Source: a virus | DNA length: 49,487 nucleotides | Reading direction: 5' to 3' (one strand) | Virus record (IMG/VR): IMGVR_UViG_3300009182_000091 | Location: 1-49,487 of that record | Shown: piece by piece, positions 18,564-45,196 of the stretch | Numbering within the stretch: position 1 is the stretch's first letter | How the letters are laid out: every line of letters starts with the position of its first letter | Program-made: the position numbers and the translations under genes | Notes under the pieces: generated by a model | What the model saw: only the letters and a program-made list of their open reading frames with translations | Databases searched by the model: none | Told to the model about the DNA's origin: nothing

Positions 18564-18621
18564 GGGTGACCTCCGAAGAGGCCACCCCAACAAAAGAGTT
18601 TTGTTCGACTATAGGTCGAAC
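18564..18621 (-). promoter_or_regulatory. Pair of hairpins at and after the capsid stop codon
   Basis: GTTCGAC-CTATA-GTCGAAC (18603-18621) is a perfect 7-bp stem enclosing the capsid stop codon. It is followed by GGGTGGCCTC-TTCG-GAGGTCACCC (18564-18587), a 10-bp stem with one mismatch closed by a TTCG tetraloop. No long T-run follows, so this looks more like an attenuator or mRNA-stabilising 3' end than a classic terminator. Confidence 0.55.
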
Positions 18622-24000: not shown

Positions 24001-26096
24001 AGAACCAAGTCAGGTGTGTATGCCGATGCAGTTACGCTGTCAGTTTGCTGTAGTACTGAAACTAGTGATTCATTGTCAAGCGGCACAACCGGTGGAGGAG
24101 TTGCTGAACGAAGGTCGTCCATGATTTTAGGATTACGGACCCACTTCTTGTCTTCGCGGGTGAACGTCATCGGCTCTGGATTTTTGGTGCTGACAGGTAC
24201 AACAGCGACAACATCCATAACTGCTCGTGGGTCGTCAGGTGATACACAAGCCAAGAACAGTGGCGGAACGTCACTTGTTTCTGGAGTGATTAGTACGTTT
24301 GCATCTTTTGTGACTGCAGTAGGTTCGCCTGCGCCGGTAACTGGCTGGTACCAAAGAGCATTAGGACTTGTAGTTTTTCCGCCTTGTGTCACAGTCTTGT
24401 TTAGCCACTTTGTCAGCATTGGATGCTTGTAAGCGTCTAGGACTAGCTTGCTACCAGTAAGATTTTGAAGTTTCTTTGCGAATGGAGAGTTTTCCATCGG
24501 AGTGACATCTAGTGTGTTACCAGGTGTCTTGGCATTAGGAGTTATACTCTTTAGAGGAGCAATCTCACCTTTCTGCGGTGAGTTAGATTCTGGATACGGT
24601 GCAACTGAGCCCTGGCGCTGTTCACTGACCCATGAAGGCCAGTCAGCGATGATTCCTGAGATGTCTTTAGGTGTAAGAGCAGGAAGTGTTCCAGGTATAG
24701 TTGCTTCACCCTTGTTGCTAGGAGTCCTAGGCTGGCCTAAAATACCAGTGGTGTCTAGCGGTTGCTGTTGCTGTTGCTGAGGGGTAGCCTGGTCTGTGGT
24801 TCCAGTAACATCTGCACGCTTAGTTGTGTTGATTGGCACTATCGAGCTTGTGCCATCTGCATGCTTTACTGTCGCCATGCCATTTGCTTTATCAAGTGAT
24901 GTGATTACACCAGGCTTACCGCCCTTGATGGTTACACTAGAACCGGCTGCAGCAAACTTTCCACCAGCGTCACGCTGTTGCTTTGATGCATTCTGTCCAC
25001 GTTCTTCAGTGGTGTACTTTCCATCACCAGCAGTCTGACCTGCAGGCGCTACAGTCACAGCGGCAACCATTGTGTAGTCTACCATTGCTAGGTCAATTTC
25101 ACCTGCAGCATTCTCAGCTAGAGCAGCTTCATGAGCATCTAGGTCATGTACTGAAACACACTTGTGAGGGTTCTGCTGTAGCATTGCTGAAATAATGACT
25201 GCCGAACCTGGGTCAATTGTGAAGTAATCCTTATCGACCAAATCGTAAGGGTCATCAAGTGCTTTATCATAGGTGTAAATGTCGCCGCTCAGGTGGCCTA
25301 GGTCGTCCCAGGTTCCATCGTCCCAGATGTAAACTTGCCCGTCTGTATCTACTTTGTAGAGACGGTCCATACCTGAACCGTCCATGCGAACACGAACTAG
25401 GAACTCAGGAGCGTCTACATCGTTGTAGCCGTTTTCAGCATCTATAGCCAGCTTGAAGTCGTCTATTTCAGCGTCATAGAGTTCTTCTGTTTCATACATT
25501 CTAGGTTGCGCATAGTAGTCATTTAGTGCATAGCCGTCGGCAGTTAGCGCCTTCTTGTTCTCACGCTCAACGATACTCTTAGACCAGCGCCAGCCGGCGT
25601 CTCCGCCCCATAGAGCCCATGCGATACGTCCGTTAGAAGGAAAGTTAGGTTCTCCAGGCTGGTAGCCTTTACCCTTTTTATCTACTTCATGACGAGGAAA
25701 GTACTTTGCAATGTGGCGAATCTTTTCAATACCAATTTGCCCACCTTTAGCGAGGGTGCGAGCTGTGCTCAAACCAACAGGCGTGCCTCCACGGTGGTGC
25801 TCCTTGTGCCACTCTAAAGACTTCTTTGCCTCATCTTGGACAGATGAAGGAATCGTATAGAGCCTGCCAGATGCAGTGATTACCTTTATGTTCAGTGTTG
25901 ATAATGCTCCATTAGCCAGTTCTATAACGGCTTCACTGACTGTGCAAGTTTTCTTGTCGCTCCACTTGCGTTTCTTTTTCATAGCAGTAGTTAGCCCGCT
26001 GTCTACGATTACGTTTAGGTCGGTGTCTACAATGACAGAGTTCTCACCGTGTTGAATCAGAGTGAGAGCGCCATCGTAACCGATGATTTCTGGCAT
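21030..26096 (-). CDS. Prohead protease polyprotein with accessory domains
   Basis: 1,688 residues from ATG 26096 (AAGGA five bases upstream, two bases after the previous stop; an in-frame ATG at 26180 would overlap that gene and is rejected). A segment at about 80-170 ends in PSNGRIAWALWGGDAG. A repeated module NRGxAExLRRYW...GDWxRCVRxLSKYLGxRAKGYC occurs twice (about 737-800 and 880-945). The U35/S78-like protease core is at about 990-1120, with candidate catalytic His1032 (TADGHQGS) and Ser1080 (LRGVSADM). Near 1435-1480 lies a small YPIRNVADLKNAIHAYGR domain of the DUF6582 type. The expected role is cutting the capsid scaffold arm. The length far exceeds usual proteases. Confidence 0.82.
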   Translation of the reverse strand: MPEIIGYDGALTLIQHGENSVIVDTDLNVIVDSGLTTAMKKKRKWSDKKTCTVSEAVIELANGALSTLNIKVITASGRLYTIPSSVQDEAKKSLEWHKEHHRGGTPVGLSTARTLAKGGQIGIEKIRHIAKYFPRHEVDKKGKGYQPGEPNFPSNGRIAWALWGGDAGWRWSKSIVERENKKALTADGYALNDYYAQPRMYETEELYDAEIDDFKLAIDAENGYNDVDAPEFLVRVRMDGSGMDRLYKVDTDGQVYIWDDGTWDDLGHLSGDIYTYDKALDDPYDLVDKDYFTIDPGSAVIISAMLQQNPHKCVSVHDLDAHEAALAENAAGEIDLAMVDYTMVAAVTVAPAGQTAGDGKYTTEERGQNASKQQRDAGGKFAAAGSSVTIKGGKPGVITSLDKANGMATVKHADGTSSIVPINTTKRADVTGTTDQATPQQQQQQPLDTTGILGQPRTPSNKGEATIPGTLPALTPKDISGIIADWPSWVSEQRQGSVAPYPESNSPQKGEIAPLKSITPNAKTPGNTLDVTPMENSPFAKKLQNLTGSKLVLDAYKHPMLTKWLNKTVTQGGKTTSPNALWYQPVTGAGEPTAVTKDANVLITPETSDVPPLFLACVSPDDPRAVMDVVAVVPVSTKNPEPMTFTREDKKWVRNPKIMDDLRSATPPPVVPLDNESLVSVLQQTDSVTASAYTPDLVLMVLFGPNPSAILAAAARSEDELDALYAGARPPSAHNIDKNRGNAEKLRRYWVRGKGAAKIRWGQGGDWKRCVRYLSKYLGVRAKGYCQLRHKEATGMYTSTHAKLVRGKHNQVTEFIMEEVLTKNYGTPTVVTDKDMLMTIDDIHAETDKAYDHAWTPEPEIEELLQDEGCKSAMTAAGGADRNRGRAEDLRRYWTVGKGGAKIRWNTPGDWTRCVRHLSKYLGTRAKGYCALRHHEMTGMWTGSQQHHRMEASVRSFDEVMEISQLNAQAHRSMERLGMIASAGMNGSKFSIPLVIPEGVESGDGRSFTKDSITTRELPLPLMWQIKTADGHQGSVVVGRIDHMERTEQGIGNAYGVFDSGAYGREAERLVRNGFLRGVSADMDMFEATEKKSKSLEESSEEPRDEQIVANPIVVSKARIMGVTIVPKPAFQECKIVIADDEEQNNNQEDSMIPDGIYVDDVDALDAEALVACGYTASAIPMNPPKSWFENPKLNKPTPLTVDDDGRVYGHIAAWHVDHIGMAFGTRPPRSKSNYAYFHTGVCRTEEGVDVPVGQLTLSGGHASIEASAAEAVKHYDDTASSFADVSAGEDAHGIWVSGALRPGTTPEQIRAIRASAPSGDWRPIRGSLELVAVCQVNVPGFPIARARVASGQVMALVAAGAATLAKMKSDPIAELAARIKTLEQFGGKADLAAKAAELATRVNSQAYFEVINHETRMKLADKGHAMPDGSYPIRNVADLKNAIHAYGRAPVGKEKAVKDLIIKRANELKKPELIPDNWKSPTAKDSLRASASDLKARVAAAQESLGKAFAAEPVDEGRTKYTFETQPRDSKGKFRKVLAVLKDSLGAAGLTNEQKLAERVEKLHDSGHYVASARAASQLMDTVHRMETGALNRDSLENIQLATAQLGTAVANSPLPFGHDTKKMRFTDLPAPLQKLTKDMMARVEKRIGKKEADQATAGLQSYLSGGQLMTQSNISAELSKMLRLLT

Positions 26097-26097
26097 G

Positions 26098-26817
26098 CTA
26101 GTCCTTTTTGTTGATGACACGGGCATACTTAAAGCCTGTGGCAGCGGATGCGGTAGTAGCAACTGGCTCATCTGCTTCATAGTTAGCCAAGTCGTCTGCT
26201 GTTAGTCCTTTGCTTTCTTTCTTATCAAAGAAGTCAACAAACTCTGGAGATACATACTCAATGTACATGTCGTCTAGCACGTCGCCGTTAGGGTCATCTA
26301 GAACTATCCATTTTCCATCCTTACGGATGTAAGTGACATCGGCTCCAGAATACACTAGATAGGTGACTTTGCCGTCGTTGTCATACAAAGCGTACAGCTC
26401 TTCCGGGCCGTAATCTTTAGCTGATTCAGGAGCTACATCAGCAGTAATTTCATTCATAAAAATCTCCTCTAGCGCTTCAGCCGGCACGGCGGTACCAGTC
26501 ATCGAAGCCCAAACTCCGTCTGAATCTTGGAACTTGCGTATTGTATAAATTGTACCTTGAGACTTAAATGTTATCTTTGAAGCAGATGCGTTTACCTTGA
26601 AGTCTTTAGCAGATTTTAGCGAGTATTCATTAGCACCTTCTACTCCACCAAGTCTAACACTGACTTCGTCTGGTGATTCATAAAGGACCACTGCGTAGAG
26701 TGAGTGGTGGCCAAGTTCACCCTCACTATCTTTACCTTCTAGAACTAACGGGCCGTAAGCGTACTGTGTTTCAGTATCACTTAACTTCTTTTCAGTCATG
26801 TCCACTATTTGTGCCAT
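26098..26817 (-). CDS. Uncharacterised acidic protein between the giant gene and the protease
   Basis: 239 residues, no recognised family. The middle (TIYTIRKFQDSDGVWASM; VTYIRKDGKWIVLDD) consists of short beta-hairpin-like strands with alternating aromatic and charged residues, partly like a segment near residue 250 of the next gene (VYIWDDGTWDDLGHL). The C-terminus is a short basic tail (KYARVINKKD). The ribosome-binding site is AAAGGAA. The operon position suggests a virion or capsid-maturation accessory role, which is inference only. Confidence 0.6.
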   Translation of the reverse strand: MAQIVDMTEKKLSDTETQYAYGPLVLEGKDSEGELGHHSLYAVVLYESPDEVSVRLGGVEGANEYSLKSAKDFKVNASASKITFKSQGTIYTIRKFQDSDGVWASMTGTAVPAEALEEIFMNEITADVAPESAKDYGPEELYALYDNDGKVTYLVYSGADVTYIRKDGKWIVLDDPNGDVLDDMYIEYVSPEFVDFFDKKESKGLTADDLANYEADEPVATTASAATGFKYARVINKKD

Positions 26818-26831
26818 CTCAGTTCCTTTTC

Positions 26832-29800
26832 TTACTTCGTTGTGTTCTTAGCAGCTTTGTAGTCAGGGCCTGTCATAACTACTGCTTCTAGAGGACGACC
26901 ACCAAGCTGGGTAATTCCCTTTTGGCGCAACTTTGTGATTACACGTGTACGCATGTCCTCGTCTTTAACCATTAGCACTGCAGCGTCATCGAAGCTTAGA
27001 CGTCCTTTGAACATCACCTCGTAGCCGCCTGGGACAGCTTGGTCAATCGGGCTCTTACCTACACGCTTTCCAAACTGGTCTCCCTTGTTGGCCCAGAAGT
27101 CTAGTCGCTGGAAGGTTCGCTCTGCATCAAACCAGAGTCCAGGTAGGAGACTACTGTTCTCAGAGTCTGTGTTAGACTTTGGAGTAGTGAAGACGTAGTC
27201 AGCGCCGCCAGTTTCAATGTCTCGACTGCTAGACTGCCCAGACGTTGGGATACCTTCACTCCAACGTACCGTGGTAGAAAGCAATCCACCTTGAGGAGTA
27301 GACACACGGTTAACGAAGTATTGCGCAACGCGGTCGCGTGCCTCTTCATCGGTTTCTCCTTGCTTAGCAGCTTGCATAGAGTAGCTGCTTCTTAAGGTGT
27401 GACGCAAAACTTTAATACCTGTCTTATTAGCAATCTTTTTTGCACTCTCTGGGTCAAGACGCATCTCAATACGGCCACCTGCACCAGTAGTAATAGTTAC
27501 GTTTTCAGGAGTAATTCCCCATGCGTCCTTGATTCTCTGAAGGCTTGCTGCGCGCTCAGAACCAGATGGGTTACTCTTCGGGTCAACCTTTTCATCTAGA
27601 ATACTCATTAGGCGGTTTTCAATCAGAATCTTGGCGTCTTCCTTAGTGCTTGGACGCACATCCTGAACACCTCCTGTATTTAGCGCTAGTGCTAGACTTT
27701 CTGGAGTCGAGTCTTTCTTAGGCGCAATAATCATTACCTTGTTGTGGTAAGCTCTAGGACCGTTTGAGCTGATTTTTGCTGAACCAGATGTGTGCTTAGT
27801 AGGAACGTCTGCACGAAGGAAGTGAATCTTAGTCCCGTCATCTAGAGTGATGATAAACGTTTGTCCATAGCCACTCTTGTATTTAGCACTACTTCCATTA
27901 AGAGACGGGACAAACGAGACTTTATCCCCGTCGACTAGGTTCTCAGGAACACTTAAGCCTGTAGTAGCTGAAACTCTAGGGTCGTTGTTCTGTATCATTT
28001 CTAGTAGTTTGTTTGCGAGCTCGTCGCCTGCCCAGCTAGTCAGCTTGTACTTCATAAGATAGGCATCTTTACCGTCTGTGCCTGTAGCCGCCATGATTCG
28101 AAGGTCCAAGTCTTCAACAGCATCAGCGTCTAGAGCAATAGAACCTCCAGCAAGACCAGAACCAGGTGTAGATACCTTAGTCAGCAACTCTTGTAGAGAA
28201 GGTGCACCTTCAAAGCCTGACTTGTCCCAACCTAGCTGGTCAATTTGCTGTGGCTTTGCACCGGCTCCGTTTTTTGGAACCGATAACTTACCAGATGGGG
28301 CCTTATTAGAGGTACCAGACTTAGTCGTGGCTCCAAAAGTAGGAAGGTTGTACTTGTCTGCATCAAGGTTCTTGAAGTATTTCTGTGCTACTTGGATGTT
28401 GTATATGTTCTTTTTATACTTAGTGTCCAACGCTGTTAGAGTGTTGGCTTTACGCTTCTTCATGCCGTCTGGATACGCAACTTTGATGTAGCCATCACTG
28501 CTATAGTTTTCTACGACAACACCAACATCGCCATTCTTGTCGACTACAAGATTCCTGAACCCAATCTTCTTGCCATTCTTGTCTTCTAGTGCAGGACCTG
28601 TCACTGGAAGCATCGGCTCTGAGTTCTTCTCAAAGTCTAGGTCTGCGACACCAGCGTAGGCGGCAGCGATTCCAGGAGTGAGATACTTTCCAGTTGCTGT
28701 TACTGTGTCAGGTGCAACTGAATCTTGTGAACCATCTTCCCAAATCATACGCATCTTGTTCGGGTCGCCGTATCCAGGATTGCGGTAGACACCGACTCTG
28801 CCGTTCTCGTCCTTGACAATGGCGCCAGGCTTGATTAGAGTTCCCGCTGAGTCGGTCTTGATAGAGTCTTTGTCCGGGTTAGTTGGGTCAGTGATAGGCT
28901 GAATTTCAGGTGCATCTGTGACATCTGGCAGAGTCATGAAATCAAAGGTAAACTTCTTAGGACCTGACGGTTTAGCAGGCTCAGCTTTTACCTCAGGAGT
29001 ACTTGGCTCAAAGTTGTTTGTTTCTAGTGCAGTTAGAGCCTCACTCTCTGCTTCATCACGGTCCTCTATGTCCATGTGTATCTGACTGAAGTCTGGACCG
29101 TTGAGGTCATAGACTACGTCCCATGTACCATTATTGTTTTTGACAACAATAACTTTTGATAGACTTCCGTCAGACTTACTGAACATAGTCATGTTTTCAG
29201 ATTTCTGCGGAATGAAAGTCTCTGCACTAGGAGCGTTAGGAGCGTTAGGAGCAGGAGTAGGTGACACAGGTTCTCCGCCAGAGCCGTTAGACTTAATCTG
29301 GTTGATAGACATAATCTTGATGACTCCACCGCTGTCAGGCTTAACCTTGACGTAGTTCGGGTCTTTCTGGAACCCAACTATTGTTCCAGTAATACCGTTC
29401 TTGCTGTGGACAACTTTGCTGCCCATCTTTCCAGCTGTGCCGTCAGACAACTGAACTGCCTGGCCACCTTCATTTACAATTTTTGTGGCACTAACAAGTT
29501 TTGTCATAGCATCGTTTAGGTCTGAAGTACTTTCAATTTTCCAGCCTGCCTTGAAGTTTTGGACTTGGTACTCTTTACCGTCATCACTCACAGTCATCAT
29601 AGCGACTGTTTCATCTTGCTCGTTCTTGACCATGATGAATCCAGTGTTACCAGCACCCTTTTCAGGTGAAGCCGTATAGCCGTCTGGTAGCTGTGACTGG
29701 ATAGACTGAGCCGTATCAGTTCTAACTTTCTCATCAGCTAGGTTTAGAAGCGTAGATTCTGGTGCAGCGACTGGAGTAGTTGGAGTTTCAACTTTAGCGG

Positions 29801-32800
29801 TTGTGCCTCCCTTAGGGCTAATTGAGTCTGCTTGGCTCTCAAGCTCCTTGGCTCCTTCAATGAGGTCTTGTATAGAGGAATCCTTTGTGCTCCACTCGGC
29901 TCCGTCTTCTCCTTCTGTTGAAGTTACTGCATCAACAAGTTCGTTGTACATTGCAGCAAGCTGGCGCAACTTCTTTGCACTCTCGTTAGTGTCTAAGTCT
30001 TTGCCTGACTTAATGTCATCTGCTATTTCACCTAGGTGAGACATAATCGACTCGCCAATTCCCTTTGAGTCCCAGCTGTGTTGAGCTACTCCAGGGTCGT
30101 ATTTTTCGTACGCGTTGTCAACTATTTTCTTGAGTGCGTCTCCTGTTATTGTGCTACTCGCTGACCCCTCCGAAGGCGCCTCTTCAGGCACATCGACTTC
30201 AGACGGCTTAAAGTTCTGGAGGGTGTAGTTCTTGCTAACTCCGTCTTCTTCACCAGTAAGGTTGATGTTGCCATTCTTAGGGTTAGTCCATACATAAGTA
30301 GGCGCGACAACACGCTCTTTGTCGTTGTACTTGAATGAAACTAGGTCACCGTTTTTGGCTGCATCTTCTAGCTGTGTCTTTAGACTATCGTTGTCGCCAT
30401 TTACATCTAGCTTCTTAGTCTTGCCAGATGAACCGGCTTCAGGGTTCTTTTTCTTAGCCGGCTTGTCGCTTAGACCGAACTTGTCAAGGATGTACTGACG
30501 ACGTGCTTTTAGCTTAGTCTTGAGTTCTTCCTGTTTAGCTGGGTCAGTGATAATTGAGTCTACTAGTTCATCTATCTGAGAAGTCGACAGGTTCTGAAGA
30601 ACCTTTGCGCTTTCTAACTTCTGTTCATCACTCATCTGGCTGAAGACTTTTGCAGATGGACGTGTGCTAGTCTTGTCTGTAAACGCATCTAGCTCTGGTA
30701 CTTCTTCACCAAACGCGCCACCCTTTGGAGAACCTTGAGCACGGAACAAAAGCGCGCCACCTGGGTCTACACGGACAGGTTCACCATTCTTATCTGTTAC
30801 TACGTTGTCGTAGTCTAGACCAATTACATCCCAGTTAGCAAGCAATGCGTCAATTGCAAAGCCTTGCTGTAAACGAGCCATGTACTCTTTGTTATTGAGG
30901 TTCTTCTTTAGGTCTTGCTTTGCGCCATCAATCATCGGCGAGTAGGTCACATCTATGCCGTCGGCATCCTTGCCAGCTAACACCTTTGCAGATGAGATTC
31001 CAGCTGCGTCATAAATCGCTGAGGCTAAACGTTCGTTTTCACCGTGAAGCTGCGACTTAGGAGCCTTGACGTAAACCTGTTCACCTGTTGCTGGATTCTC
31101 AAAGGTTCCGCCTGGGTTTGAACCTTTTTGACCGCCGACCTTTTTCCATTTAGACAGGTCTAGGCTGCCAGCTTGCTCTTCCTTGATTGTGTCAACGGTA
31201 ACAACGTTGTTCTTGTTTCCACCTTCTGCTGGAGTAAAACTATCTACAGAATCAGCAAGTTTCTTAATGTATTCGGTAAGAGCAACTGGTGCGCCTTCTT
31301 TGTAAAGTGCGTCGTGCAGTGAGTACAAATCTCCTGCAACAGCAATGCTGTTTGCACCATCTGATTCATCTAGGCTATCTAGAAGATTCTGGATTACATT
31401 CTCGTTGCCGCTAACACCCTTTAGCATTGGCTCGTAGCCAATGTCTTGCTTGTCAAGAATCATTGCAATACTCATGTCGGCACCAGTTACTAATGAACGA
31501 CTACCTCCGGTTTCTGCTAGCAATTTATCACTGTTATCACTGCTGAATGGGTTCTTTACCGTGTCTGTTGCTTGCTCAACTGGAGCTGGCTCTACAGGTG
31601 CGATTTCAGGTACTACCGACTTCTCATCAGCAATAACCTCGGCTTCTGTTTCAGGAGTAACATCTTTCTGATTCCTGTTGAAAATTACTGTCTCACCATT
31701 AGGGAAACTAACTGCACTATATTTTCCAGACTGCGCTGCCCACTGTGCGATTAGGTGCTCAACAGGCTCAGCCATGCTGTTGCCGCTTGCCTTTTCTTCT
31801 TCACGCTTTTTCTGGATGTAGTCAAACGCACCGCTAGCCCTTGTAGCAGCTAGACCAGCCTTAGTTTCAAGTTCTTTCTTATCGTTCTTGTAGACGATGT
31901 TGAGCTGCCTTGAATACTCGAAAGCAGGAATCTCAACTTTTAGTTTTGCAATTTCCTTTGCGTCAGGGTGTGTTGCCCAATACTCGCTAGCCATGTACTC
32001 GCTCATGCCGTAGCCGTACTCAGCTACAAACATTGCACCTGGAATTCCCCACTGGCTGCCGCCTAGTGTGTCCTTACCTTCTGGGTTGAATCCATTTTCG
32101 ATAATAGATTTTGCGTTTTCTGGAGTTGTCCAGTGGACTAGTTCTCCTGACTTGATGTCAGACCCATCCGTGATGATAGCAGCATAGTTCTTGTCAGGAG
32201 TTCCTGGCTTTCTAGCCTTCATGTCTGCTAGTAACTGTTCAGCTGCAGCCTTACCGTCACTGATTTTATGGCCCTCGCCAAAGAACTTTTGTGCAATTAC
32301 TTTGCCATTCTCATCTAGTAGCCTGGCAATTACTTCGTCTACCTTACCACCAACACCTCCGTTGTTTGAGCCTTGCTTATGGTGCCAAGTCTTAAGAGTG
32401 TAACCAGTTTCTGGGTCAGTAGCAATGACATCACCGTACCCGTCTATTTTCCAATCTGCAGCTGGAGCAGCTGGAGCCTCAGCAGGAACAACAATGTTAG
32501 CAGGTTCTGCCATCGTGTTCTCAAGCTCAGGATGATTCTCATAGAACTTTTTAATGAGTGCATCTTGAACTCTTTGAAGCTGCGCATTGCGCTGAGGCTT
32601 TACAGCTTTAGAAGTACGAGTTGCTGAGATTTCATCTATTACACGCTGAAGGTCTTCCTCATTACTAATCTTGCTAATGAGCTCACTTAGTGTGTCTCCA
32701 TTGAATGCTTTTCCAAGCTCTTCATCGATTGCAGCAATAGTGCCATCAGGTAGTCTTTCACTTACAGCAGAAAGGAACTCAATGTCAGGCTGTGCTTCAG

Positions 32801-35800
32801 TTGAAGCCTCGTTCTTGTCGAGTGCAGCGATACTACTCTTTAGCTCGCCGAATTTCTTCCATCGTGCCTTATCCAGTGCTGTTGGGAAGTCGACTGCCCA
32901 GCTGGTGTTGTACTCACCTTCACGGCTGTTCCAGTGTCCAGGTGATTTAGTGCGAAGCCAATCAAAAATCTCTTTTGACGGTGCGCCGGAGTTGATGAGC
33001 TTTGACAGGTCACCGTTCTCATTGTCGTATCCCTTTAGCGCATTTGTTACGAACTGAGGCTCGAAACCTTCAGGTGCAGCCGGAAGCCCGTACGCTGCAT
33101 TAATAATCGCCCATTCTTCTGGTCTTTGCGATTCATCTGCTGAAATGTACTTATAGCCAGTCGCAAACCCTGTAGGCGACATCGTCTTGTACTCATTCTT
33201 GATTTGCTGCTTGTTTAACGCAGCAATGATGTCATCACCGTTGCGTAGAGTTCCATCTAGGATTCCGCTACGTACCGTGTTTTCAGGGTCATTGCTGTCT
33301 GAGATTAGTGAAACAAGATTGTCTAGTGCAGACTGGTGCTCTTCTTTTGAAAGTGGAGTTATGCTTGCTTGACCTTGCTTTAGAGCGTCTAGCTTATCAC
33401 TCAGTGCTTTTGCTGTTTCTTCGCTCTTAGCTTTAGCATCTGCAGAAGACTGAGCCTCGCCCTCTGTTTTGTGGGCGTTTAGAGCTGAATTAAGAGATGT
33501 GCCTTCTTGACTGTAATCAGAGTACGATGAAGACGTGCCTTCCCAGTTTTTATTACCTTTGAGTAGGTCACGGATTTCCTGACTAGTAATCTCTCCACCA
33601 TTTGCAGTCTTCTCGTCAATGCTACGACGAATAGAACCATCTAAGTCAAACGGTGCAAGTTTCTCCTTGATTTTTGCTAGCTCAGGGTTAGTGTGCTGGT
33701 TTAGTGGGTCGCTACCGTCGGTTAGAGCAACTTTGGCCTTTGGCAAAACTTTTAGTTCATTGAACAAAGTATTGACACCGAACTTGTCAATTGAAGCAAG
33801 ACGGTCCATGTAGCCTTGACGCTCTTCGCTAGTCATGACACGCTCACGTAGCATAGAGCGAATCATTTCTGTTTGCTTTTTGCTAGGTCTGTTTATAGGG
33901 GCTACAGTCGACTTTGTCGCAGGCAGCGGCTGTGAACCATTTGCCTTTCCTTCACCGAACTTCTCAGCTGCGTCTAAGATATCTTTTTTAAGCTGGCTAG
34001 ACTGCTCAGGGTTTAGGTAACTAAGCATCTTACCGATGTTGCTCTTTAGTTCACCTTCGCTGCTAAACAGGTCAAGAACATCTTGCTTAGTAGCTCCTCC
34101 AAAATCTATAGCGTCTCTTAGCTGGAACTCTAGGTCGTACGGAGCGACCAGCATCTTAACTCTCTCTAGGAACGGGTCGCTATTTTTATTTAGCGGGTCT
34201 GTGCCTGGAGTAATTTGACTGCCCTTGCGAAATGGAAGCTTATACAACATGTTAATGATGTTGCTAGCCTCGCCAACAGTAGTACCGTTGTCTAGACTGC
34301 GAAGAATCTCTTCTCTCTGTTCCGGAGGTAGGTCTTTTTTGTCGACCGTGGTTCTAATCGTGTGTAACTGTAGTTTTGATGCTCGCTCGCGGTTTATACC
34401 TGTCCATTTAGTAACACGGAGCGGGTCTTCATTAGGGTCACTGTAGGTCTTGCCGGTCACTTCTTTGCCGACTATAAACTGGATTTTAGCTAGCGCAGAA
34501 GAGTTCTTCTCAGCGTTAAGCTGCTGGTCTTCTCCAGGTTTAGTGTATTTCCCTAGAGCTTCTATACCGGCATCGATGTCATCCATGGTAATCTCACCGA
34601 CAATACCGTTAGCACTGTGTAGTTCTTCTTCTCTCCAAAATGGAAATGCTCTTGAGGCTCTTGCTAGTTCATTCTGCACGTCAGGATTACTCTGGTCCAT
34701 GCTCTTTAGTTGTGTAATTCTCTGCTGCAGAGCTTCTCTAACTCTGGTTATTGCTTTGCTAGGAGCGTTCTGTAGCGGACCTGTTGACAACAACTCGTCG
34801 GTGCCGGTCTCTTTTTTGCTGGCTACAAACTTCTTTTCCTTAGGATTCCAGAATGTTCTCTTTTCTAGATTTCTTTGGGTAGGCCATCTAAACGGTTCAG
34901 CCGCTGCAGGTTTCGCAGTCTCAGATGCTGCAGCGTTAGAAGTAGAAACAACTTTTAGAGTGTTAGGCTCGTCTAGCACAGTTGTTTTTTTATCTTCAAA
35001 CGTGATTCGGTCACCGGTGTCCATTGAAAACTTTTTAGCGACAGTACGACGTGAACCATCTGGGAAGACAACGACATCGCCAACCTTGATTTCAGGGCCA
35101 GTCTTGTCAACAAGAGTCTCTTCTTGTGGAGTTGCCTTAGAGTCGGCTGCGTGAAGCTGCTGTAGAACACCAGCGGCTTCACCACGAGTCTTAGCGGAGG
35201 CTAAAGCATCCTTGGCTTTTGCAGCAATCTCAGGATTAGCAGAGTTAGAGAACTCTTCTAGAGCCTTTTTCTGGTTGTCTGTAGTCGGGTTATTAGGCGA
35301 GACAACATTCTTGAACTCAGCCATGCGTTCTTCATAACGCTTTTTCATTGCAGGGAAGTCTAGAAGACTGAGGTCTTTATTGTCTTCTTTTGCAGCGCGG
35401 TCAATGATTCTAGAAACCAAGTTGTAAGCATCTTCTGCATCACCGTCAGCTGAGTGCCAGTTAGCCGGTTCAAAGCCAAGGAAGTTAGCAACAGGACCTA
35501 GGCTAGTCGTGGCTTTGATTTCACCAGTCTTACGGTCAGGTGCCTTAGGACCGTCGGTTCCTGTTTCTGGGTCGTACTTAGGTAGAAGTGAAGCAAGGTC
35601 TTTAGAGTCGATGGTTCCAGCAATGTCCAGCTTTACGCCGGCATCGTCAGCCATACGCTTTAGAATCTCAACGTCGAAAGGAACGTTCTGACCGCCGAGA
35701 AGTGCGTTAGGGCCAATGAACGCCATAAACTCTTTAATAGCGTCGTCTTTACTCTTCTGCTGAGCTAGCCACTCTGGAGTTACTAGTGTGGTCTTTGGCT

Positions 35801-37631
35801 TTCCGTTTTCGTCTAGAACTCTGTTGCCGTTCTCGTCTAGAATGTCGCGACCTAGATTTTTTGCTGACCAGTCAGAGAGCTTACTCTCAGGGTTCGTGTA
35901 GACGTTGAAACGTCCAATAATCTTGCCGTCTTTTACCTTGACAGCACCAAGTTGGACAGAGTCGTTGGTAATGTCCTGACCATCGTAGTCAGCGATACCA
36001 GTGGTCTCAAAGTCAAAGTAAGTAACAGTCTGGCCTTGTAGACGGTCTTGAACATCTTTCCAGCTCTGAGCACCTTGCATAATGTTCTGGAATTCACCAG
36101 TGAAAGCACCAGGAGTCGGAAGACGAGTTCCGCTTGCATCCATAGTCGCAGACTGGAAGTCGATACCCAGGTTGTCTAGTGAGCCTGGAACGCTTGGTGC
36201 AGTAGAAGTTGATTCTGCTGCCGGCTTTACTTCTGCCTTTGGAAGTTGCTTCTGACGGACGTCGTAGATTCTTGCAGTCTTGTTGACCTCAAAGTATCTT
36301 TCCTTGCCAGTCTTTAGATTGCGAATCTTGATTCCGTACTTACCTGGGGCTTTGCCCTTGTAGATACCTAGAATCTCTTCTGTCGGAGGAAGTTCGTAAC
36401 TAGGGTCTGCTTGGCGCTTCTTCAGCATGTTCTCCTCGGCGCCCTTAATCGGGTAGTAGTCTGGGAGCAAGTCGCCTGTGTAGAGCTGGTCTACTCTAAG
36501 GTCCTTCTTTAGATAAGTTGCTGCTTCAGCCTCTGCTGGCTGCTCAGTTCCACTGCCGAACTCGTCGTCAGCTACCTTCTTGATGTGGGCCTGGATTGCT
36601 GGCCACTCAGCTGCATCTAGACCTTCAACTACATTACCGTTTTGGTCTTTTAGCTCGTACTTCAAGTCTCCTTTAGGAGTGGCGATAAAGCCATCTTCAG
36701 TTGCAAAGTCACCATTTGGAAGTTTCTTCCAGTCGCTTGGAGCTTCTAGCTTATTTGCTAGAAGGTCTTTGATGTCCTGTGCACGCTTGACTGTGCTGGC
36801 CTTACCAGCTGGAAGTTCGATTCCAGCTTTTTTCAGCTGGTCAGTTGTAAGAACTACACCTAGAGACTCAAAGTTGTCTAGGTTTACAGGAAGAATGTCT
36901 CCCTTCTTTAGACCTAGCGATGCGTCGTCTTCGGTGATGTAAAGTTCACCGGTGTTTGTGGTCGACGACCCGCCTACTAGAACACCTAGCTGGCTCTTTA
37001 CCTTACTTCCGAAGCGAACTAAGAATGAACCCATGTGGCCTTCAAAGGCGAAGCGCTTTAGACGGTCACGAAGCTGGCGCTTTGCACGAGCACTACGTGC
37101 AGCTGAAGAGTTTCCATCTGCGATAAGTGCAACAAGGTCAAGCGGAATGTCTCTGCCTGCAGCTTCTAGACGCGCTAGAGCATGCATACGCTCGAGTGAA
37201 CCGAACTCCATTGTCTGTATTGACGCGACTAACGGGCGAAGCTCTTCGGCAATCCTTGGGTCAGCAGACAGCCATTCGGCACGAGCTTCTGCAATAGCAG
37301 ATGCAGTTAGTCCTGAGCGCGCTGCTGAAAGCGGGTGCGAGATTGGAAGCAGGTCAAAGTGTTCTGCTTTTTCATTAGTACGAAGACCTAGAGTTGCTAG
37401 TGTGATAAAACGGTCAACTGCACGCTCGACTGCGAAAGCACGAGCGCTAGCATCGGTGTGAGGTGTGCGAGCAAGAACTCTGTCCGCTACAGTCAACGCT
37501 GCAGTAAGTGGAACACGGCGAGCAGGAAGCACACGCGCATTAGCAATAAGCACAAGCTCTGCTATGTGAACTCTAATGCTAGGAGTGTCATCAATCTCTG
37601 GCACGTTTGGGTTTTCGTATTCGCTACTCAC
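26832..37631 (-). CDS. Giant multi-domain (polyvalent-like) protein: exonuclease, kinase-like and ART-like parts
   Basis: 3,599 residues. The N-terminal 220 are helical and basic. Around 530-745 lies a full DEDDh 3'-5' exonuclease set: Asp540/Glu542 (YFDFETTG), Asp653 (GQNVPFDVEIL), His726/Asp731 (HSADGDAED). Around 1820-1990 a segment starting LVHWTTPENAKSIIENGF resembles ADP-ribosyltransferase-fold toxins. Around 2190-2400 a HipA-like kinase pattern occurs (VYVKAPKSQ, DALLANWDVIGLDYDN, VDPGG). Small SH3/KOW-like barrels appear near 850, 2930 and 3020, and a duplicated DPLNxxxxP segment near 1120-1340. The last 200 residues may be a second ART-like fold. GTG start overlaps the previous stop (TAGTG) after AGGAAGG. 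The position in the head operon suggests a virion protein delivered with DNA. Confidence 0.75.
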   Translation of the reverse strand: MSSEYENPNVPEIDDTPSIRVHIAELVLIANARVLPARRVPLTAALTVADRVLARTPHTDASARAFAVERAVDRFITLATLGLRTNEKAEHFDLLPISHPLSAARSGLTASAIAEARAEWLSADPRIAEELRPLVASIQTMEFGSLERMHALARLEAAGRDIPLDLVALIADGNSSAARSARAKRQLRDRLKRFAFEGHMGSFLVRFGSKVKSQLGVLVGGSSTTNTGELYITEDDASLGLKKGDILPVNLDNFESLGVVLTTDQLKKAGIELPAGKASTVKRAQDIKDLLANKLEAPSDWKKLPNGDFATEDGFIATPKGDLKYELKDQNGNVVEGLDAAEWPAIQAHIKKVADDEFGSGTEQPAEAEAATYLKKDLRVDQLYTGDLLPDYYPIKGAEENMLKKRQADPSYELPPTEEILGIYKGKAPGKYGIKIRNLKTGKERYFEVNKTARIYDVRQKQLPKAEVKPAAESTSTAPSVPGSLDNLGIDFQSATMDASGTRLPTPGAFTGEFQNIMQGAQSWKDVQDRLQGQTVTYFDFETTGIADYDGQDITNDSVQLGAVKVKDGKIIGRFNVYTNPESKLSDWSAKNLGRDILDENGNRVLDENGKPKTTLVTPEWLAQQKSKDDAIKEFMAFIGPNALLGGQNVPFDVEILKRMADDAGVKLDIAGTIDSKDLASLLPKYDPETGTDGPKAPDRKTGEIKATTSLGPVANFLGFEPANWHSADGDAEDAYNLVSRIIDRAAKEDNKDLSLLDFPAMKKRYEERMAEFKNVVSPNNPTTDNQKKALEEFSNSANPEIAAKAKDALASAKTRGEAAGVLQQLHAADSKATPQEETLVDKTGPEIKVGDVVVFPDGSRRTVAKKFSMDTGDRITFEDKKTTVLDEPNTLKVVSTSNAAASETAKPAAAEPFRWPTQRNLEKRTFWNPKEKKFVASKKETGTDELLSTGPLQNAPSKAITRVREALQQRITQLKSMDQSNPDVQNELARASRAFPFWREEELHSANGIVGEITMDDIDAGIEALGKYTKPGEDQQLNAEKNSSALAKIQFIVGKEVTGKTYSDPNEDPLRVTKWTGINRERASKLQLHTIRTTVDKKDLPPEQREEILRSLDNGTTVGEASNIINMLYKLPFRKGSQITPGTDPLNKNSDPFLERVKMLVAPYDLEFQLRDAIDFGGATKQDVLDLFSSEGELKSNIGKMLSYLNPEQSSQLKKDILDAAEKFGEGKANGSQPLPATKSTVAPINRPSKKQTEMIRSMLRERVMTSEERQGYMDRLASIDKFGVNTLFNELKVLPKAKVALTDGSDPLNQHTNPELAKIKEKLAPFDLDGSIRRSIDEKTANGGEITSQEIRDLLKGNKNWEGTSSSYSDYSQEGTSLNSALNAHKTEGEAQSSADAKAKSEETAKALSDKLDALKQGQASITPLSKEEHQSALDNLVSLISDSNDPENTVRSGILDGTLRNGDDIIAALNKQQIKNEYKTMSPTGFATGYKYISADESQRPEEWAIINAAYGLPAAPEGFEPQFVTNALKGYDNENGDLSKLINSGAPSKEIFDWLRTKSPGHWNSREGEYNTSWAVDFPTALDKARWKKFGELKSSIAALDKNEASTEAQPDIEFLSAVSERLPDGTIAAIDEELGKAFNGDTLSELISKISNEEDLQRVIDEISATRTSKAVKPQRNAQLQRVQDALIKKFYENHPELENTMAEPANIVVPAEAPAAPAADWKIDGYGDVIATDPETGYTLKTWHHKQGSNNGGVGGKVDEVIARLLDENGKVIAQKFFGEGHKISDGKAAAEQLLADMKARKPGTPDKNYAAIITDGSDIKSGELVHWTTPENAKSIIENGFNPEGKDTLGGSQWGIPGAMFVAEYGYGMSEYMASEYWATHPDAKEIAKLKVEIPAFEYSRQLNIVYKNDKKELETKAGLAATRASGAFDYIQKKREEEKASGNSMAEPVEHLIAQWAAQSGKYSAVSFPNGETVIFNRNQKDVTPETEAEVIADEKSVVPEIAPVEPAPVEQATDTVKNPFSSDNSDKLLAETGGSRSLVTGADMSIAMILDKQDIGYEPMLKGVSGNENVIQNLLDSLDESDGANSIAVAGDLYSLHDALYKEGAPVALTEYIKKLADSVDSFTPAEGGNKNNVVTVDTIKEEQAGSLDLSKWKKVGGQKGSNPGGTFENPATGEQVYVKAPKSQLHGENERLASAIYDAAGISSAKVLAGKDADGIDVTYSPMIDGAKQDLKKNLNNKEYMARLQQGFAIDALLANWDVIGLDYDNVVTDKNGEPVRVDPGGALLFRAQGSPKGGAFGEEVPELDAFTDKTSTRPSAKVFSQMSDEQKLESAKVLQNLSTSQIDELVDSIITDPAKQEELKTKLKARRQYILDKFGLSDKPAKKKNPEAGSSGKTKKLDVNGDNDSLKTQLEDAAKNGDLVSFKYNDKERVVAPTYVWTNPKNGNINLTGEEDGVSKNYTLQNFKPSEVDVPEEAPSEGSASSTITGDALKKIVDNAYEKYDPGVAQHSWDSKGIGESIMSHLGEIADDIKSGKDLDTNESAKKLRQLAAMYNELVDAVTSTEGEDGAEWSTKDSSIQDLIEGAKELESQADSISPKGGTTAKVETPTTPVAAPESTLLNLADEKVRTDTAQSIQSQLPDGYTASPEKGAGNTGFIMVKNEQDETVAMMTVSDDGKEYQVQNFKAGWKIESTSDLNDAMTKLVSATKIVNEGGQAVQLSDGTAGKMGSKVVHSKNGITGTIVGFQKDPNYVKVKPDSGGVIKIMSINQIKSNGSGGEPVSPTPAPNAPNAPSAETFIPQKSENMTMFSKSDGSLSKVIVVKNNNGTWDVVYDLNGPDFSQIHMDIEDRDEAESEALTALETNNFEPSTPEVKAEPAKPSGPKKFTFDFMTLPDVTDAPEIQPITDPTNPDKDSIKTDSAGTLIKPGAIVKDENGRVGVYRNPGYGDPNKMRMIWEDGSQDSVAPDTVTATGKYLTPGIAAAYAGVADLDFEKNSEPMLPVTGPALEDKNGKKIGFRNLVVDKNGDVGVVVENYSSDGYIKVAYPDGMKKRKANTLTALDTKYKKNIYNIQVAQKYFKNLDADKYNLPTFGATTKSGTSNKAPSGKLSVPKNGAGAKPQQIDQLGWDKSGFEGAPSLQELLTKVSTPGSGLAGGSIALDADAVEDLDLRIMAATGTDGKDAYLMKYKLTSWAGDELANKLLEMIQNNDPRVSATTGLSVPENLVDGDKVSFVPSLNGSSAKYKSGYGQTFIITLDDGTKIHFLRADVPTKHTSGSAKISSNGPRAYHNKVMIIAPKKDSTPESLALALNTGGVQDVRPSTKEDAKILIENRLMSILDEKVDPKSNPSGSERAASLQRIKDAWGITPENVTITTGAGGRIEMRLDPESAKKIANKTGIKVLRHTLRSSYSMQAAKQGETDEEARDRVAQYFVNRVSTPQGGLLSTTVRWSEGIPTSGQSSSRDIETGGADYVFTTPKSNTDSENSSLLPGLWFDAERTFQRLDFWANKGDQFGKRVGKSPIDQAVPGGYEVMFKGRLSFDDAAVLMVKDEDMRTRVITKLRQKGITQLGGRPLEAVVMTGPDYKAAKNTTK

Positions 37632-39049
37632 TAGCTAGCCCTTCCTCTGCGCGGCAGCAAATCTGCATCGCGACTTTCATAGAGATTTGTAGCAAGGTCC
37701 ACAACTCGCTCAAACGGTGATTCATCATCTTGTGTAGCACGAAGCCATGTTGCTCGTAAAGCTGGAATGAGCTCGTAGCCTAAGCCTGAAATCTCAGCGC
37801 ATGCAAGTAGCACGTGCTCTGGATTATCGTACTCATGTTCCTCACGGAGCTCGATAGTTAATTCAAGATAATCGTCTTCGACGTACGCACCTGCAGTCTT
37901 GCCCTTAGTCGAGCGAGGATGACCTGCTGGAAGAATGTCGTTGTCCTGCACGTAGTTAGCATTTGCAGGTTTACCTGTCTTCAACAAGTGCAGGTAAGCG
38001 TTTACACGTGCAAGTGCCCATTGGTCTCTGGTAATGCCAGTTCGATGTGAAGATGAATAAGCTCCAGCTCCACGACGGTAGACACGACGCAACTGGTTTA
38101 GAGTTACGTGATGTCCTTTCTTAGCACCTTGGTTATGTGATGCAACCTTGTTTCGTAGCACGGCTTCGGTTTGAGCAGAGAAACGTACAGGTAACTTAGA
38201 ACTGCCAGATGCAGAACCAGGTTTGTTTACCTTTGAGCCATGAATTCGGTCTTTTTTAGGTGCACGCTTAGACGGATTGGCAGCAGCCGTTACTGTCTCT
38301 TGCTTAGGTGAGTCTTCTGTAATCGGCCCGCCGACAACCCAGGCCGAACAAGTTCTTGAGGCAGCACACTTGAAATCAAAAGCTTCACAGTAACCAAGCT
38401 CGGCGGTGTCGATAGCGTCCCAAGCGTTTTGTGCACCAGAGTCTCCAGCAGCAAGACCACCTTCAATACAGTCTAGCATCTTAGGTGTGCGAATAAACAT
38501 GACACAAGTACCACAACGGCTCTTCTTAGCCTCAGTAACGGTCACAGACCAGCGGTTAGCCTTCTCAGCCCAGAACTCTTCGTTAGGTTCCTCAGGATTT
38601 AGAGGTCCATACTTTGCAACTTCAATTGCTTTCTCACGATTAGCAAGGTTTATAGCAATGTCTTGAGTCGCAGGTGGGCAGACGCTTTCTTCCTCGGCTG
38701 CAGCAACTACAGGTGCAAGGTTCTGCTTCTTGAACGGCTCGACTTCGACAGGCGCCTTGCTCGGGTCGACAACACCATCTGGTATTACTGCAAAGCGGCA
38801 ATAACCTTCTGGGTCAACATCAAAAGCAACGACGGCACATCCTTGGCCTCCACGATACAAGACACAGTTGCTGCATTTGACACCCATCTCAGCGTATGGA
38901 TTATCTGCAGGTTCATGGTAGTCGGCCCAGATTCCGGTCTGGTCCTCGTTGAACTTACCGTACTTGTCCGCAATTTGGATAAGTGCGCGGGCAAGGTCCT
39001 GTTCCTCAGGAACTAGATTTCCGTCGGCCTGTATTGGACTGTCTGACAT
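37631..39049 (-). CDS. Cysteine-rich virion-operon protein, possible metal or Fe-S binder
   Basis: 472 residues. Cys groups: CSNC, a Cys in GGQGC and GYC near residues 58-83 (spacing reminiscent of small high-potential iron-sulfur proteins), then CGTC, DC, GYC, KC and RTC at about 180-235 (GYCEAFDFKCAASRTCSAWV). A third region, RRVYRRGAGAYSSSHR...WALARVN, resembles a short conserved segment of phage proteins that often follow the portal. Cofactor and function are not established; metal binding is inferred from the Cys pattern. It ends on the start of the giant gene (TAGTG overlap), so the two are co-translated. Confidence 0.6.
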   Translation of the reverse strand: MSDSPIQADGNLVPEEQDLARALIQIADKYGKFNEDQTGIWADYHEPADNPYAEMGVKCSNCVLYRGGQGCAVVAFDVDPEGYCRFAVIPDGVVDPSKAPVEVEPFKKQNLAPVVAAAEEESVCPPATQDIAINLANREKAIEVAKYGPLNPEEPNEEFWAEKANRWSVTVTEAKKSRCGTCVMFIRTPKMLDCIEGGLAAGDSGAQNAWDAIDTAELGYCEAFDFKCAASRTCSAWVVGGPITEDSPKQETVTAAANPSKRAPKKDRIHGSKVNKPGSASGSSKLPVRFSAQTEAVLRNKVASHNQGAKKGHHVTLNQLRRVYRRGAGAYSSSHRTGITRDQWALARVNAYLHLLKTGKPANANYVQDNDILPAGHPRSTKGKTAGAYVEDDYLELTIELREEHEYDNPEHVLLACAEISGLGYELIPALRATWLRATQDDESPFERVVDLATNLYESRDADLLPRRGRAS

Positions 39050-45164: not shown

Positions 45165-45196
45165 AAAGCCTCCTCGAAAGGGGAGGTTTTCTTTTT
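45165..45196. terminator. Bidirectional terminator between the island and the large terminase gene
   Basis: GAAAGCCTCCTC-GAAA-GGGGAGGTTTTC, up to a 12-bp stem with wobbles. T-runs follow on the plus strand, and on the minus strand TTTCTTT follows the stem, so it can end transcripts arriving from both sides. Confidence 0.82.

What the first reader, a model, noticed from the sequence alone, without database searches (positions are those of the whole stretch)
26832..37631. 3,599-residue polyvalent-like protein in the head operon
One uninterrupted 10.8-kb gene, over a fifth of the window, between a Cys-rich protein and the prohead protease. It contains several unrelated enzyme-like parts separated by small beta-barrels. 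Phage and conjugative-element 'polyvalent proteins' (described by Aravind and colleagues) are believed to be delivered with DNA and to attack or shield against host functions. This domain combination would make a very large example.
Basis: partly seen in the sequence, partly recalled or inferred. Interest (0 to 1): 0.88.

Follow-up and report, generated by a model that had tools for sequence, protein, structure and literature searches.

The report
Giant multi-enzyme phage head cargo protein
A virus of actinobacteria carries one huge, cysteine-free protein that strings together a DNA-trimming enzyme, a kinase and a toxin-like fold, encoded among the head genes; it looks like cargo that is packed in the virus head and shot into the bacterium with the DNA.

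Summary
The ORF is real: 26832-37631, MINUS strand, 3,599 aa, no internal stop, identical in two other IMG/VR contigs. It lies in an actinophage head operon (portal, Dps-like, Cys-rich gene, giant, 239-aa gene, protease polyprotein, capsid) and belongs to a family of giants, up to 5,188 aa, in that slot. Modules supported: DnaQ-type exonuclease with all five catalytic residues; CtkA/HipA-fold kinase with intact active site; WYL-like barrel; a C-terminal domain with DarT-like (ADP-ribosyltransferase) fold, the last only suggestive. Close relatives differ in the presence and place of whole modules, DnaQ included. Two new clues favour packing and ejection. It has 0 Cys in 3,599 aa; the family has 0.34 per 1,000 against 3-7 in portal, capsid, protease and terminase, like ejected proteins of N4, T7 and P22 (but scaffolds and tape measures are Cys-free too); its DnaQ and kinase modules lack Cys, homologues elsewhere do not. 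An RDxxG[RK]F tag plus small barrel near the N-terminus is shared with the protease polyprotein (degenerate in this copy). Best reading: a polyvalent-type virion effector, a new variant of a known kind. Packaging, delivery and targets are inferred, not shown.

The parts
26832..37631 (-). Giant gene, 3,599 aa, GTG start, 0 cysteines
37077..37589 (-). Conserved N-terminal domain, residues 15-185
   Evidence: DSL-LC01 37%; 35 non-redundant sequences including W itself; no Pfam match at E<=10
36792..37076 (-). Degenerate RDxxG[RK]F tag (RDRLKRF, from residue 189) and following small barrel, residues 186-280
35124..36200 (-). Exchangeable cassette, residues 478-836, absent from close relative L020/L100
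35307..36029 (-). DnaQ-type DEDDh 3'-5' exonuclease module, residues 535-775 (D540, E542, D653, H726, D731)
31647..32159 (-). Possible ADP-ribosyltransferase-like segment, residues 1825-1995 (by eye only, unconfirmed)
   Evidence: no significant Pfam, PDB or phage match; mostly low-confidence model
30462..31169 (-). CtkA/HipA-fold kinase, residues 2155-2390 (K2189, E2200, D2268, N2276, D2289 invariant in 44 sequences)
30177..30428 (-). WYL-like barrel, residues 2402-2485
29793..30194 (-). Mobile segment, residues 2480-2613, absent from L020; W 2497-2620 is 73% identical to L021 2672-2795, where it lies on the other side of the kinase
27648..28235 (-). N-part of the conserved C-terminal domain, residues 3133-3328, fold not assigned
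26847..27428 (-). DarT-like (ADP-ribosyltransferase) C-terminal fold, residues 3402-3595; invariant S3467, D3471, Y3479, R3509, D3518, G3521; nearly invariant R3456, E3538
37631..39049 (-). Cys-rich head-operon protein, 472 aa, 12 Cys
39072..39629 (-). Dps/ferritin-like protein
   Evidence: Pfam Ferritin 9.8e-16
39642..41330 (-). Portal protein
   Evidence: 71% identical to the DSL-LC01 portal
26098..26817 (-). 239-aa head-operon protein, 0 Cys
21030..26180 (-). 1,716-aa protease polyprotein with RD motifs at residues 403 and 1557
18609..20909 (-). Major capsid protein
   Evidence: PHROG 777 3.4e-70
45196..46611 (-). Terminase large subunit

Best explanation
The gene encodes a polyvalent-type virion effector of an actinophage. 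Inferred course: (1) it is made late with the head proteins; (2) its N-terminal region, with the RDxxG[RK]F tag and barrel that the family shares with the protease/scaffold polyprotein, takes it into the procapsid; (3) being free of cysteine it can be threaded, at least partly unfolded, through portal and tail with the DNA; (4) in the cell its modules act at once: the DnaQ exonuclease trims 3' ends of nucleic acid, the CtkA/HipA-fold kinase phosphorylates host targets, and the DarT-like C-terminal domain ADP-ribosylates host nucleic acid or protein. The middle is an exchangeable set of cassettes between a conserved N-terminus and a conserved domain at or near the C-terminus. Shown: gene, modules, catalytic residues of exonuclease and kinase, conserved operon slot, cassette exchange, Cys purge, shared tag. 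Inferred: packaging, ejection, activity, targets.
For: Slot: of 74 non-redundant kinase-bearing ORFs, 56 loci hold a portal homologue, always upstream, and 43 a protease homologue, always downstream (many loci are cut short). Modules; Pfam over 29 large proteins of the set (26 with the kinase) finds ART, UvrD helicase, NUDIX, WYL and KTSC, PHROGs over 15 of them add Alt-like ART and RNA ligase. Exchange. Cys: 65 in 191,529 aa over 67 actinophage giants (29 with none) against portal 4.58, terminase 7.21, protease 5.76, MCP 3.06 per 1,000; Cys is the only residue far off (0.05 of the level in other proteins; the rest 0.65-1.37). Nine ejected proteins of N4, T7 and P22: 2 Cys in 7,257 aa, against 141 in 17,151 for 31 others. 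Module-matched: DnaQ 0 in 5,060 aa in giants against 27 in 2,116 aa free-standing; kinase 0 in 15,277 aa against 65 in 14,875 aa in bacterial genomes. PMC2784036 (passage) states that N4 vRNAP is injected, has no Cys, and that this could matter for entry. Tag: 48 of 71 giants and 25 of 29 ORFs that match both protease-polyprotein queries, 0 of 51 portals, 0 of 21 terminases, 0 of 21 MCPs. Of 190 other long ORFs, 11 have the tag near the N-terminus, with 2 Cys in 14,375 aa. MuF-family domains (Phage_Mu_F 6, Phage_min_cap2 2) among 25 bacterial-genome proteins with this kinase.
Against: No virion proteomics for this phage; the only 'particle associated' label I saw is a GenBank note on a distant kinase-bearing protein (Yersinia phage fHe-Yen8-01), and no paper on that phage was found. 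Scaffolds (T7 gp9, P22 gp8), tape measures, half of the MCPs (10 of 21) and the 239-aa family (0.96 per 1,000, 5 proteins) are also Cys-poor or Cys-free, so Cys loss is not proof of ejection. The gammaproteobacterial phage homologues are less depleted (1.31 per 1,000, 4 proteins), and 35 of 71 kinase domains in bacterial genomes also have no Cys. 23 of 71 giants lack the strict tag and W's own copy is degenerate. No HExxH metallopeptidase is present, the processing enzyme that the polyvalent model expects. The DarT link is weak: Z 6.8, no Foldseek hit at E<=0.001, hhalign 70% falling to 10.6% without two divergent members.
Confidence: 0.62

Rival explanations
1. Internal head protein that is packaged but stays in the capsid: a giant core or scaffold-like protein whose enzyme domains act during assembly or are vestigial.
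For: Tag and barrel shared with the protease/scaffold polyprotein; scaffolds of T7 and P22 also have 0 Cys.
Against: Catalytic residues of the kinase are kept in all 44 aligned sequences and those of DnaQ in W; enzyme modules turn over quickly, which suits an arms race better than architecture; the protease polyproteins, which should stay behind, are not Cys-poor (5.76 per 1,000 over 44).
Confidence: 0.18
2. Late cytosolic multi-enzyme protein that is never packaged, merely co-transcribed with head genes, acting on host or on superinfecting phage.
For: Operon position alone does not show packaging.
Against: Cys purging of the modules tested and the shared tag have no obvious reason in the cytosol; the same kinase is fused to MuF, a virion protein, in some bacterial-genome homologues.
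Confidence: 0.12
3. Weapon against eukaryotic grazers (the 'Trojan horse' idea proposed for ADP-ribosyltransferases of freshwater phages in PMC6802176).
For: That paper reports 24 freshwater phages with VIP2-like ADP-ribosyltransferases, some predicted to infect actinobacteria (passage).
Against: No part for entering eukaryotic cells was recognised in the family scans; DnaQ, helicase and NUDIX partners in relatives fit bacterial targets; the kinase module also occurs in Gordonia phages from soil.
Confidence: 0.04
4. Assembly chimera that fuses unrelated genes.
For: The very unusual length.
Against: Identical ORF in two other contigs, a 3,091-aa relative with 88% identity in the kinase and a 3,289-aa gene in DSL-LC01 in the same slot.
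Confidence: 0.01

Closest known systems
Polyvalent proteins of phages (Iyer et al. 2017, PMC5512222)
   Same: Very large chain of disparate enzymes encoded among late head genes of a portal-terminase phage; ART, helicase and NUDIX modules in relatives; kinase fused to MuF in some bacterial-genome homologues.
   Different: None of the catalogued domains was found here by Pfam. HipA, DarT and DnaQ are not mentioned in the main text of that paper (find; supplements not read). It lacks an HExxH metallopeptidase and is purged of Cys. The paper's own kinase family is described as lacking the C-terminal subdomain; whether the kinase here is the same family could not be tested.
Coliphage N4 virion RNA polymerase (gp50, 3,500 aa)
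   Same: Similar size, encoded with virion genes, 0 Cys; packed and injected (PMC2784036 passage).
   Different: No RNA polymerase domain detected here; different modules.
Actinomycetia phage DSL-LC01 WJZ48510 (3,289 aa, hypothetical protein)
   Same: Same operon slot; shared N-terminus, kinase, C-terminal domain and WYL-like barrels.
   Different: No DnaQ match; different middle; 2 Cys.
T4 Alt and Alt-like head ARTs
   Same: 5 of 15 scanned members of the set match PHROG 802, Alt-like ART (the answer does not say which).
   Different: The window protein itself has no Pfam or PHROG ART hit.
DarT DNA ADP-ribosyltransferases
   Same: C-terminal fold (Z 5.8-6.8, six top rows); the nearly invariant E3538 aligns with the conserved DarT Glu.
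   Different: No Pfam DarT hit; no macro-domain match in the 127-kb record G212; sequence link weak.
H. pylori CtkA / HipA-like / CotH kinases
   Same: Fold (Z 16.9 CtkA, 14.5 CotH, 12.6 HipT) and active-site residues (roles recalled).
   Different: About 17% identity; embedded in a virion-operon giant.

Membership tests
Polyvalent proteins (PMC5512222) | Two or more domains of unrelated biochemical activity in one chain | tested here: met
   DnaQ and kinase
Polyvalent proteins (PMC5512222) | Encoded next to late virion genes of a portal-terminase phage | tested here: met
Polyvalent proteins (PMC5512222) | Contains a catalogued polyvalent domain (MuF, ART-HYD2, zincin and so on) | tested here: inconclusive
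   None in the Pfam scan of the whole protein (E<=1) or of eight pieces, seven from the window (E<=10; only below-cut-off hits to unrelated families); relatives match ART, and bacterial-genome kinase proteins match MuF and ART
Polyvalent proteins (PMC5512222) | Enters the host with the DNA | not testable with these tools
   Indirect only: Cys purge
N4-type virion RNA polymerase | T7-like RNA polymerase domain | tested here: not met
   No RNA polymerase family in Pfam or PHROG scans
N4-type virion RNA polymerase | No cysteine | tested here: met
DnaQ-type DEDDh exonucleases | D-E-D-H-D catalytic residues in order (motif recalled) | tested here: met
   family match
CtkA/HipA-like kinases | Fold with ATP-site Lys, Glu and Asp/Asn/Asp catalytic set (set recalled) | tested here: met
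DarT | DarT fold | tested here: inconclusive
   Z 5.8-6.8 for the six top rows, next row 4.0, under the tool's own Z 8 caution; hhalign 70%, or 10.6% with 9 of 11 members, best of 25 decoys 5.8%
DarT | Match to Pfam DarT (PF14487) | tested here: not met
MuF polymorphic toxins | N-terminal MuF domain | tested here: not met
   residues 1-344, no Pfam match at E<=10
WYL domains | Match to Pfam WYL | tested here: inconclusive
   Not in W itself; W 2415-2472 aligns with L054 810-869, where WYL matches below its cut-off at E 0.0026

The most novel reading that the evidence does not exclude
These long actinophages use a general cargo code for proteins fired through the tail: an RDxxG[RK]F tag with a small barrel, shared with the scaffold/protease polyprotein, loads the cargo into the procapsid, and strict removal of cysteine lets it pass the tail and refold. 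Enzymes captured into the cargo slot are purged of cysteine, so the pair of marks can be read from sequence alone to predict ejected effectors. The cargo here delivers a kinase, an exonuclease and a DarT-like transferase that may ADP-ribosylate host DNA from the first moment of infection.
Probability: 0.35. Interest if true: 0.86.

Novelty: new variant of a known kind. Interest (0 to 1): 0.68.

Why it matters
The giant takes up about a twelfth of the 127-kb record that holds it, and its counterparts in DSL-LC01, Zooman, Phendrix, Forza (gp78) and Sixama (gp73) are annotated only as hypothetical proteins. Conserved ends, swapped enzyme cassettes, a cysteine purge and a tag shared with the protease polyprotein give such genes a concrete and testable role as ejected cargo, and would give a sequence rule for finding ejected effectors in uncultured phages. 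The phages carry whiB (19 of 19 actino-type records, 0 of 3 gammaproteobacterial ones), so the hosts are very probably actinobacteria.

Tried and rejected
Single-sequence searches of IMG/VR with three pieces found only near-identical contigs; profiles were needed. PDB profile searches with the C-terminal and kinase alignments gave no credible relative (one ribosomal chain at E 0.057). The segment 1825-1995, which I read by eye as an H-Y-E type ADP-ribosyltransferase, got no support from Pfam, PDB or phages and a mostly poor model, so it is not claimed. A KOW/SH3 barrel model was seeded partly with W's own segments at wrongly guessed places, so its high scores mean nothing; only the unseeded 2741-2788 hit counts, and it is weak. 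Self-protection enzymes: ADP-ribosylglycohydrolase in 2 of 22 records and macro domain in 3 of 22, none in the 127-kb record G212 that holds the same giant. The BFVD search of the C-terminal model gave nothing at E<=0.001. N-part of the C-terminal domain: only weak matches of mixed folds, Z 4.0 or less. The free-standing DnaQ control counts 13 of 27 fetched loci: 4 were dropped for short alignments and 10 had no hit to the giants' model. The ejected and other lists for N4, T7 and P22 were picked by hand; that T7 gp14-16 and 7.3 and P22 gp16 are ejected is recalled. UvrD helicase was found only inside giants, apart from one weak hit in Mecenats66, so no helicase-matched Cys control was possible. 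The decoys were run only with the motif removed.
Full report
WHAT IS THERE. The ORF runs 26832-37631 on the minus strand, 3,599 aa, GTG, no internal stop. The window is an IMG/VR virus record; the same ORF is present at 100% in two other contigs, one of them 127 kb. The upstream gene's stop overlaps the start as TAGTG. In transcription order: terminase, further genes, portal, Dps/ferritin-like (Pfam Ferritin 9.8e-16), Cys-rich protein, giant, 239-aa protein, 1,716-aa protease polyprotein, major capsid protein, tail genes. The nearest named phage by terminase is Actinomycetia phage DSL-LC01 (73%), followed by Microbacterium and Gordonia phages. DSL-LC01 has a 3,289-aa 'hypothetical protein' in the same slot. 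Its paper (PMC10611076; passages only) predicts an actinobacterial host; the passages I saw do not discuss that gene. whiB is present in 19 of 19 actino-type records and in 0 of 3 gammaproteobacterial ones.

A FAMILY OF GIANTS. The kinase profile (A1) found 563 encoding stretches in viral contigs, of which 80 loci were kept. After removing duplicates there are 74 kinase-bearing ORFs, named phages included; complete ones reach 5,188 aa and one cut by the locus end is at least 5,912 aa. Of the 74, 56 loci hold a portal homologue (always upstream), 43 a protease homologue (always downstream), 24 a Dps-like and 22 a terminase homologue; many loci are too short to show all. Wherever matched, the N-terminal domain (W about 15-340) is at the N-terminus and the C-terminal domain (W about 3130-3590) at or near the end of its ORF; the kinase and DnaQ lie between them in varying order (DnaQ before the kinase in W and L064, after it in L046 and L054). 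Not every kinase ORF has both ends: L023, L034, L061, L065, L087, L096 and the named Gordonia and gammaproteobacterial phage proteins match W in the kinase region only. In some loci the chain is split into separate genes (N-terminal part in L044; C-terminal part in L080 and L082).

CASSETTES. The close relative L020/L100 (3,091 aa) matches W at 58-80% over its main segments but lacks W 478-836, which holds DnaQ, and W 2480-2613. W 2497-2620 is 73% identical to L021 2672-2795 although the other matched parts of the two proteins are 37-51% identical, and it lies after the kinase in W and before it in L021. This looks like recent exchange of modules.

MODULES. DnaQ: Pfam RNase_T 1.8e-8, PHROG 192 1.6e-13, a PolC exonuclease structure at 6.6e-5 over three weak stretches; D540, E542, D653, H726 and D731 are in place. 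Kinase: AlphaFold model with block pLDDT mostly above 90 in this domain; Foldseek top seven rows all CtkA, best 4.2e-7; VIA Z 16.9 over 223 residues at 3.6 A for CtkA, 14.5 for CotH, 12.6 for HipT; K2189, E2200, D2268, N2276 and D2289 are invariant in 44 aligned sequences. C-terminal domain: model pLDDT 83.7, pTM 0.83; six DarT chains lead at Z 5.8-6.8 over about residues 3400-3595 and the next row is 4.0, but Foldseek alone has no match at E<=0.001 (DarT1 8baq 0.17, probability 0.80) and the tool warns that Z under 8 may be only a common arrangement. A profile comparison with 11 DarT sequences fetched through PF14487 gives 70%, with E3538 opposite the conserved DarT glutamate; without the two most divergent DarTs it is 10.6%; the best of 25 unrelated or reversed profiles is 5.8%. 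I call it DarT-like, not DarT. WYL-like barrel. Over 29 large proteins of the set (14 + 15 members; 26 with the kinase, three kinase-less ones from Zooman, Forza and Sixama; some cut to 5,000 aa) Pfam finds RNase_T in 9, ADPrib_exo_Tox in 10, UvrD helicase in 6, NUDIX in 5, WYL in 3 and KTSC in 3 (the answers do not say which members, but one search places ART, NUDIX, RNase_T, helicase and KTSC together in L054). PHROGs for 15 of the 29 add Alt-like ART, DNA helicase and RNA ligase.

SAME KINASE IN BACTERIAL GENOMES. 74 loci among 84,980 species genomes. Of 25 proteins scanned, Pfam finds Phage_Mu_F in 6, Phage_min_cap2 in 2, ADPrib_exo_Tox in 9 and ART in 3 (counts are per family and may share members). 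MuF is described as a head component fused to packaged effectors in PMC9503650 (section 27 read). So the kinase travels with virion-type domains outside actinophages too.

THE CYSTEINE PURGE. W has 0 Cys in 3,599 aa; at the rate of the window's other ORFs (51 in 10,894 aa, the Cys-rich gene left out) the chance is about 5e-8. Over 67 non-redundant actinophage giants: 65 Cys in 191,529 aa, 29 with none; portal 4.58, protease 5.76, terminase 7.21, MCP 3.06, unclassified ORFs 6.36 per 1,000. Against 437 other ORFs p is about 3e-18, without correction for kinship, and Cys is the only residue that stands far out (ratio 0.05; the others 0.65-1.37). Yardstick: nine ejected proteins of N4, T7 and P22 have 2 Cys in 7,257 aa, and 31 other proteins of the same phages have 141 in 17,151. 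Module-matched: DnaQ in giants 0 in 5,060 aa (22 sequences) against 27 in 2,116 aa (13 free-standing domains); kinase 0 in 15,277 aa (66) against 65 in 14,875 aa (71 in bacterial genomes, 35 of them with none). The idea is not mine: PMC2784036 (one passage) says of N4 vRNAP that the lack of cysteine could be important for entering the host. Against a simple reading: T7 and P22 scaffolds, tape measures (W's own putative one: 0 in 1,450 aa), 10 of 21 MCPs and the 239-aa family (1 Cys in 1,046 aa) are also Cys-free or Cys-poor, and the four gammaproteobacterial homologues have 1.31 per 1,000.

THE RD TAG. A motif R[DEG]xxG[RK][FWY] followed by a small barrel lies near residue 200 in most giants that have it: 48 of 66 ORFs with a complete 5' end have it within the first 350 residues, where 0.017 per whole giant is expected by shuffling. 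W has a degenerate copy (RDRLKRF) that the strict pattern misses. By class it is in 48 of 71 giants, in 25 of 29 ORFs that match both protease-polyprotein queries (30 of 52 over all ORFs that match either), in 19 of 464 unclassified ORFs, and in 0 of 51 portals, 21 terminases, 21 MCPs, 16 Dps-like and 42 Cys-rich proteins. The unit in giants and the one in the middle of the protease polyprotein align at 96.9% probability, and at 47.9% with the motif removed, against at most 1.1% for nine decoys run with the motif removed; a second copy near the end of the polyprotein shares the motif only (64.7 and 87.5% with it, 0.2% without). Of 190 other ORFs of 400 aa or more, 11 have the tag within the first 80 residues; they hold 2 Cys in 14,375 aa (10 with none), against 5.22 per 1,000 in 125 untagged ones, 5.23 in 31 protease polyproteins that carry the motif inside, 7.07 in 13 protease-class ORFs without it and 1.55 in 10 others with it elsewhere. 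In 10 of these 11 cases a kinase giant lies in the same locus. So the tag at the N-terminus and the Cys purge go together, while the tag alone does not bring the purge. My reading, inferred: the tag marks what goes into the procapsid, the purge marks what leaves through the tail.

COMPARISON. Polyvalent proteins (PMC5512222: abstract, sections 5, 6, 9, 10, 32 and 33 and word finds) are large multi-domain proteins, encoded by phages near late virion genes, thought to enter with the DNA. The protein meets the marks that gave a clear answer, but no catalogued domain was found in it. HipA, DarT and DnaQ do not occur in that paper's main text (its supplements were not read), so the module set appears new to the class as far as the main text shows. 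That paper describes its own kinase family as lacking the C-terminal subdomain, in phages of Verrucomicrobia-Chlamydia and Bacteroidetes; some of the genome loci here are from Verrucomicrobia, and I could not test whether the two families are one. Whether the RD tag is in print was not searched. Three searches on ejected proteins and cysteine (listings) gave one relevant paper.

VERDICT. A new variant of a known kind, with a testable cargo rule as its most novel part.

Noticed in passing
window 39072-39629 (-): A Dps/ferritin-like gene sits between portal and giant; Dps-like homologues occur in 24 of 74 giant loci. A DNA-protecting ferritin in a head operon may itself be virion cargo, but it does contain Cys.
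   Followed up: partly
window 37631-39049 (-): A Cys-rich protein (12 Cys in 472 aa) overlaps the start of the Cys-free giant; hits to the Cys-rich queries occur in 51 of 74 loci, some of them in other head proteins, and a DSL-LC01 relative is annotated as a high potential iron-sulfur protein.
   Followed up: no
L023, L034, L037, L040, L041, L042, L044, L045, L085, L096: A second long, nearly Cys-free, RD-tagged protein (764-2,007 aa, some cut by the locus end) lies in the same locus as the kinase giant; a likely second cargo.
   Followed up: partly
window 21030-26180 (-): The prohead protease is part of a 1,716-aa polyprotein that is split into several genes in DSL-LC01 and in Gordonia phages.
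   Followed up: partly
window 8267-12619 (-): The putative tape measure (1,450 aa) also has no cysteine, as do those of DSL-LC01, Zooman and Phendrix.
   Followed up: partly
L013 612-1616; L195, L196: Gordonia phages Sixama and Forza encode an ADP-ribosylglycohydrolase near the terminase, possibly protection against their own ART cargo.
   Followed up: partly
L052, L053, L093: Some giants carry two copies of the kinase domain.
   Followed up: no
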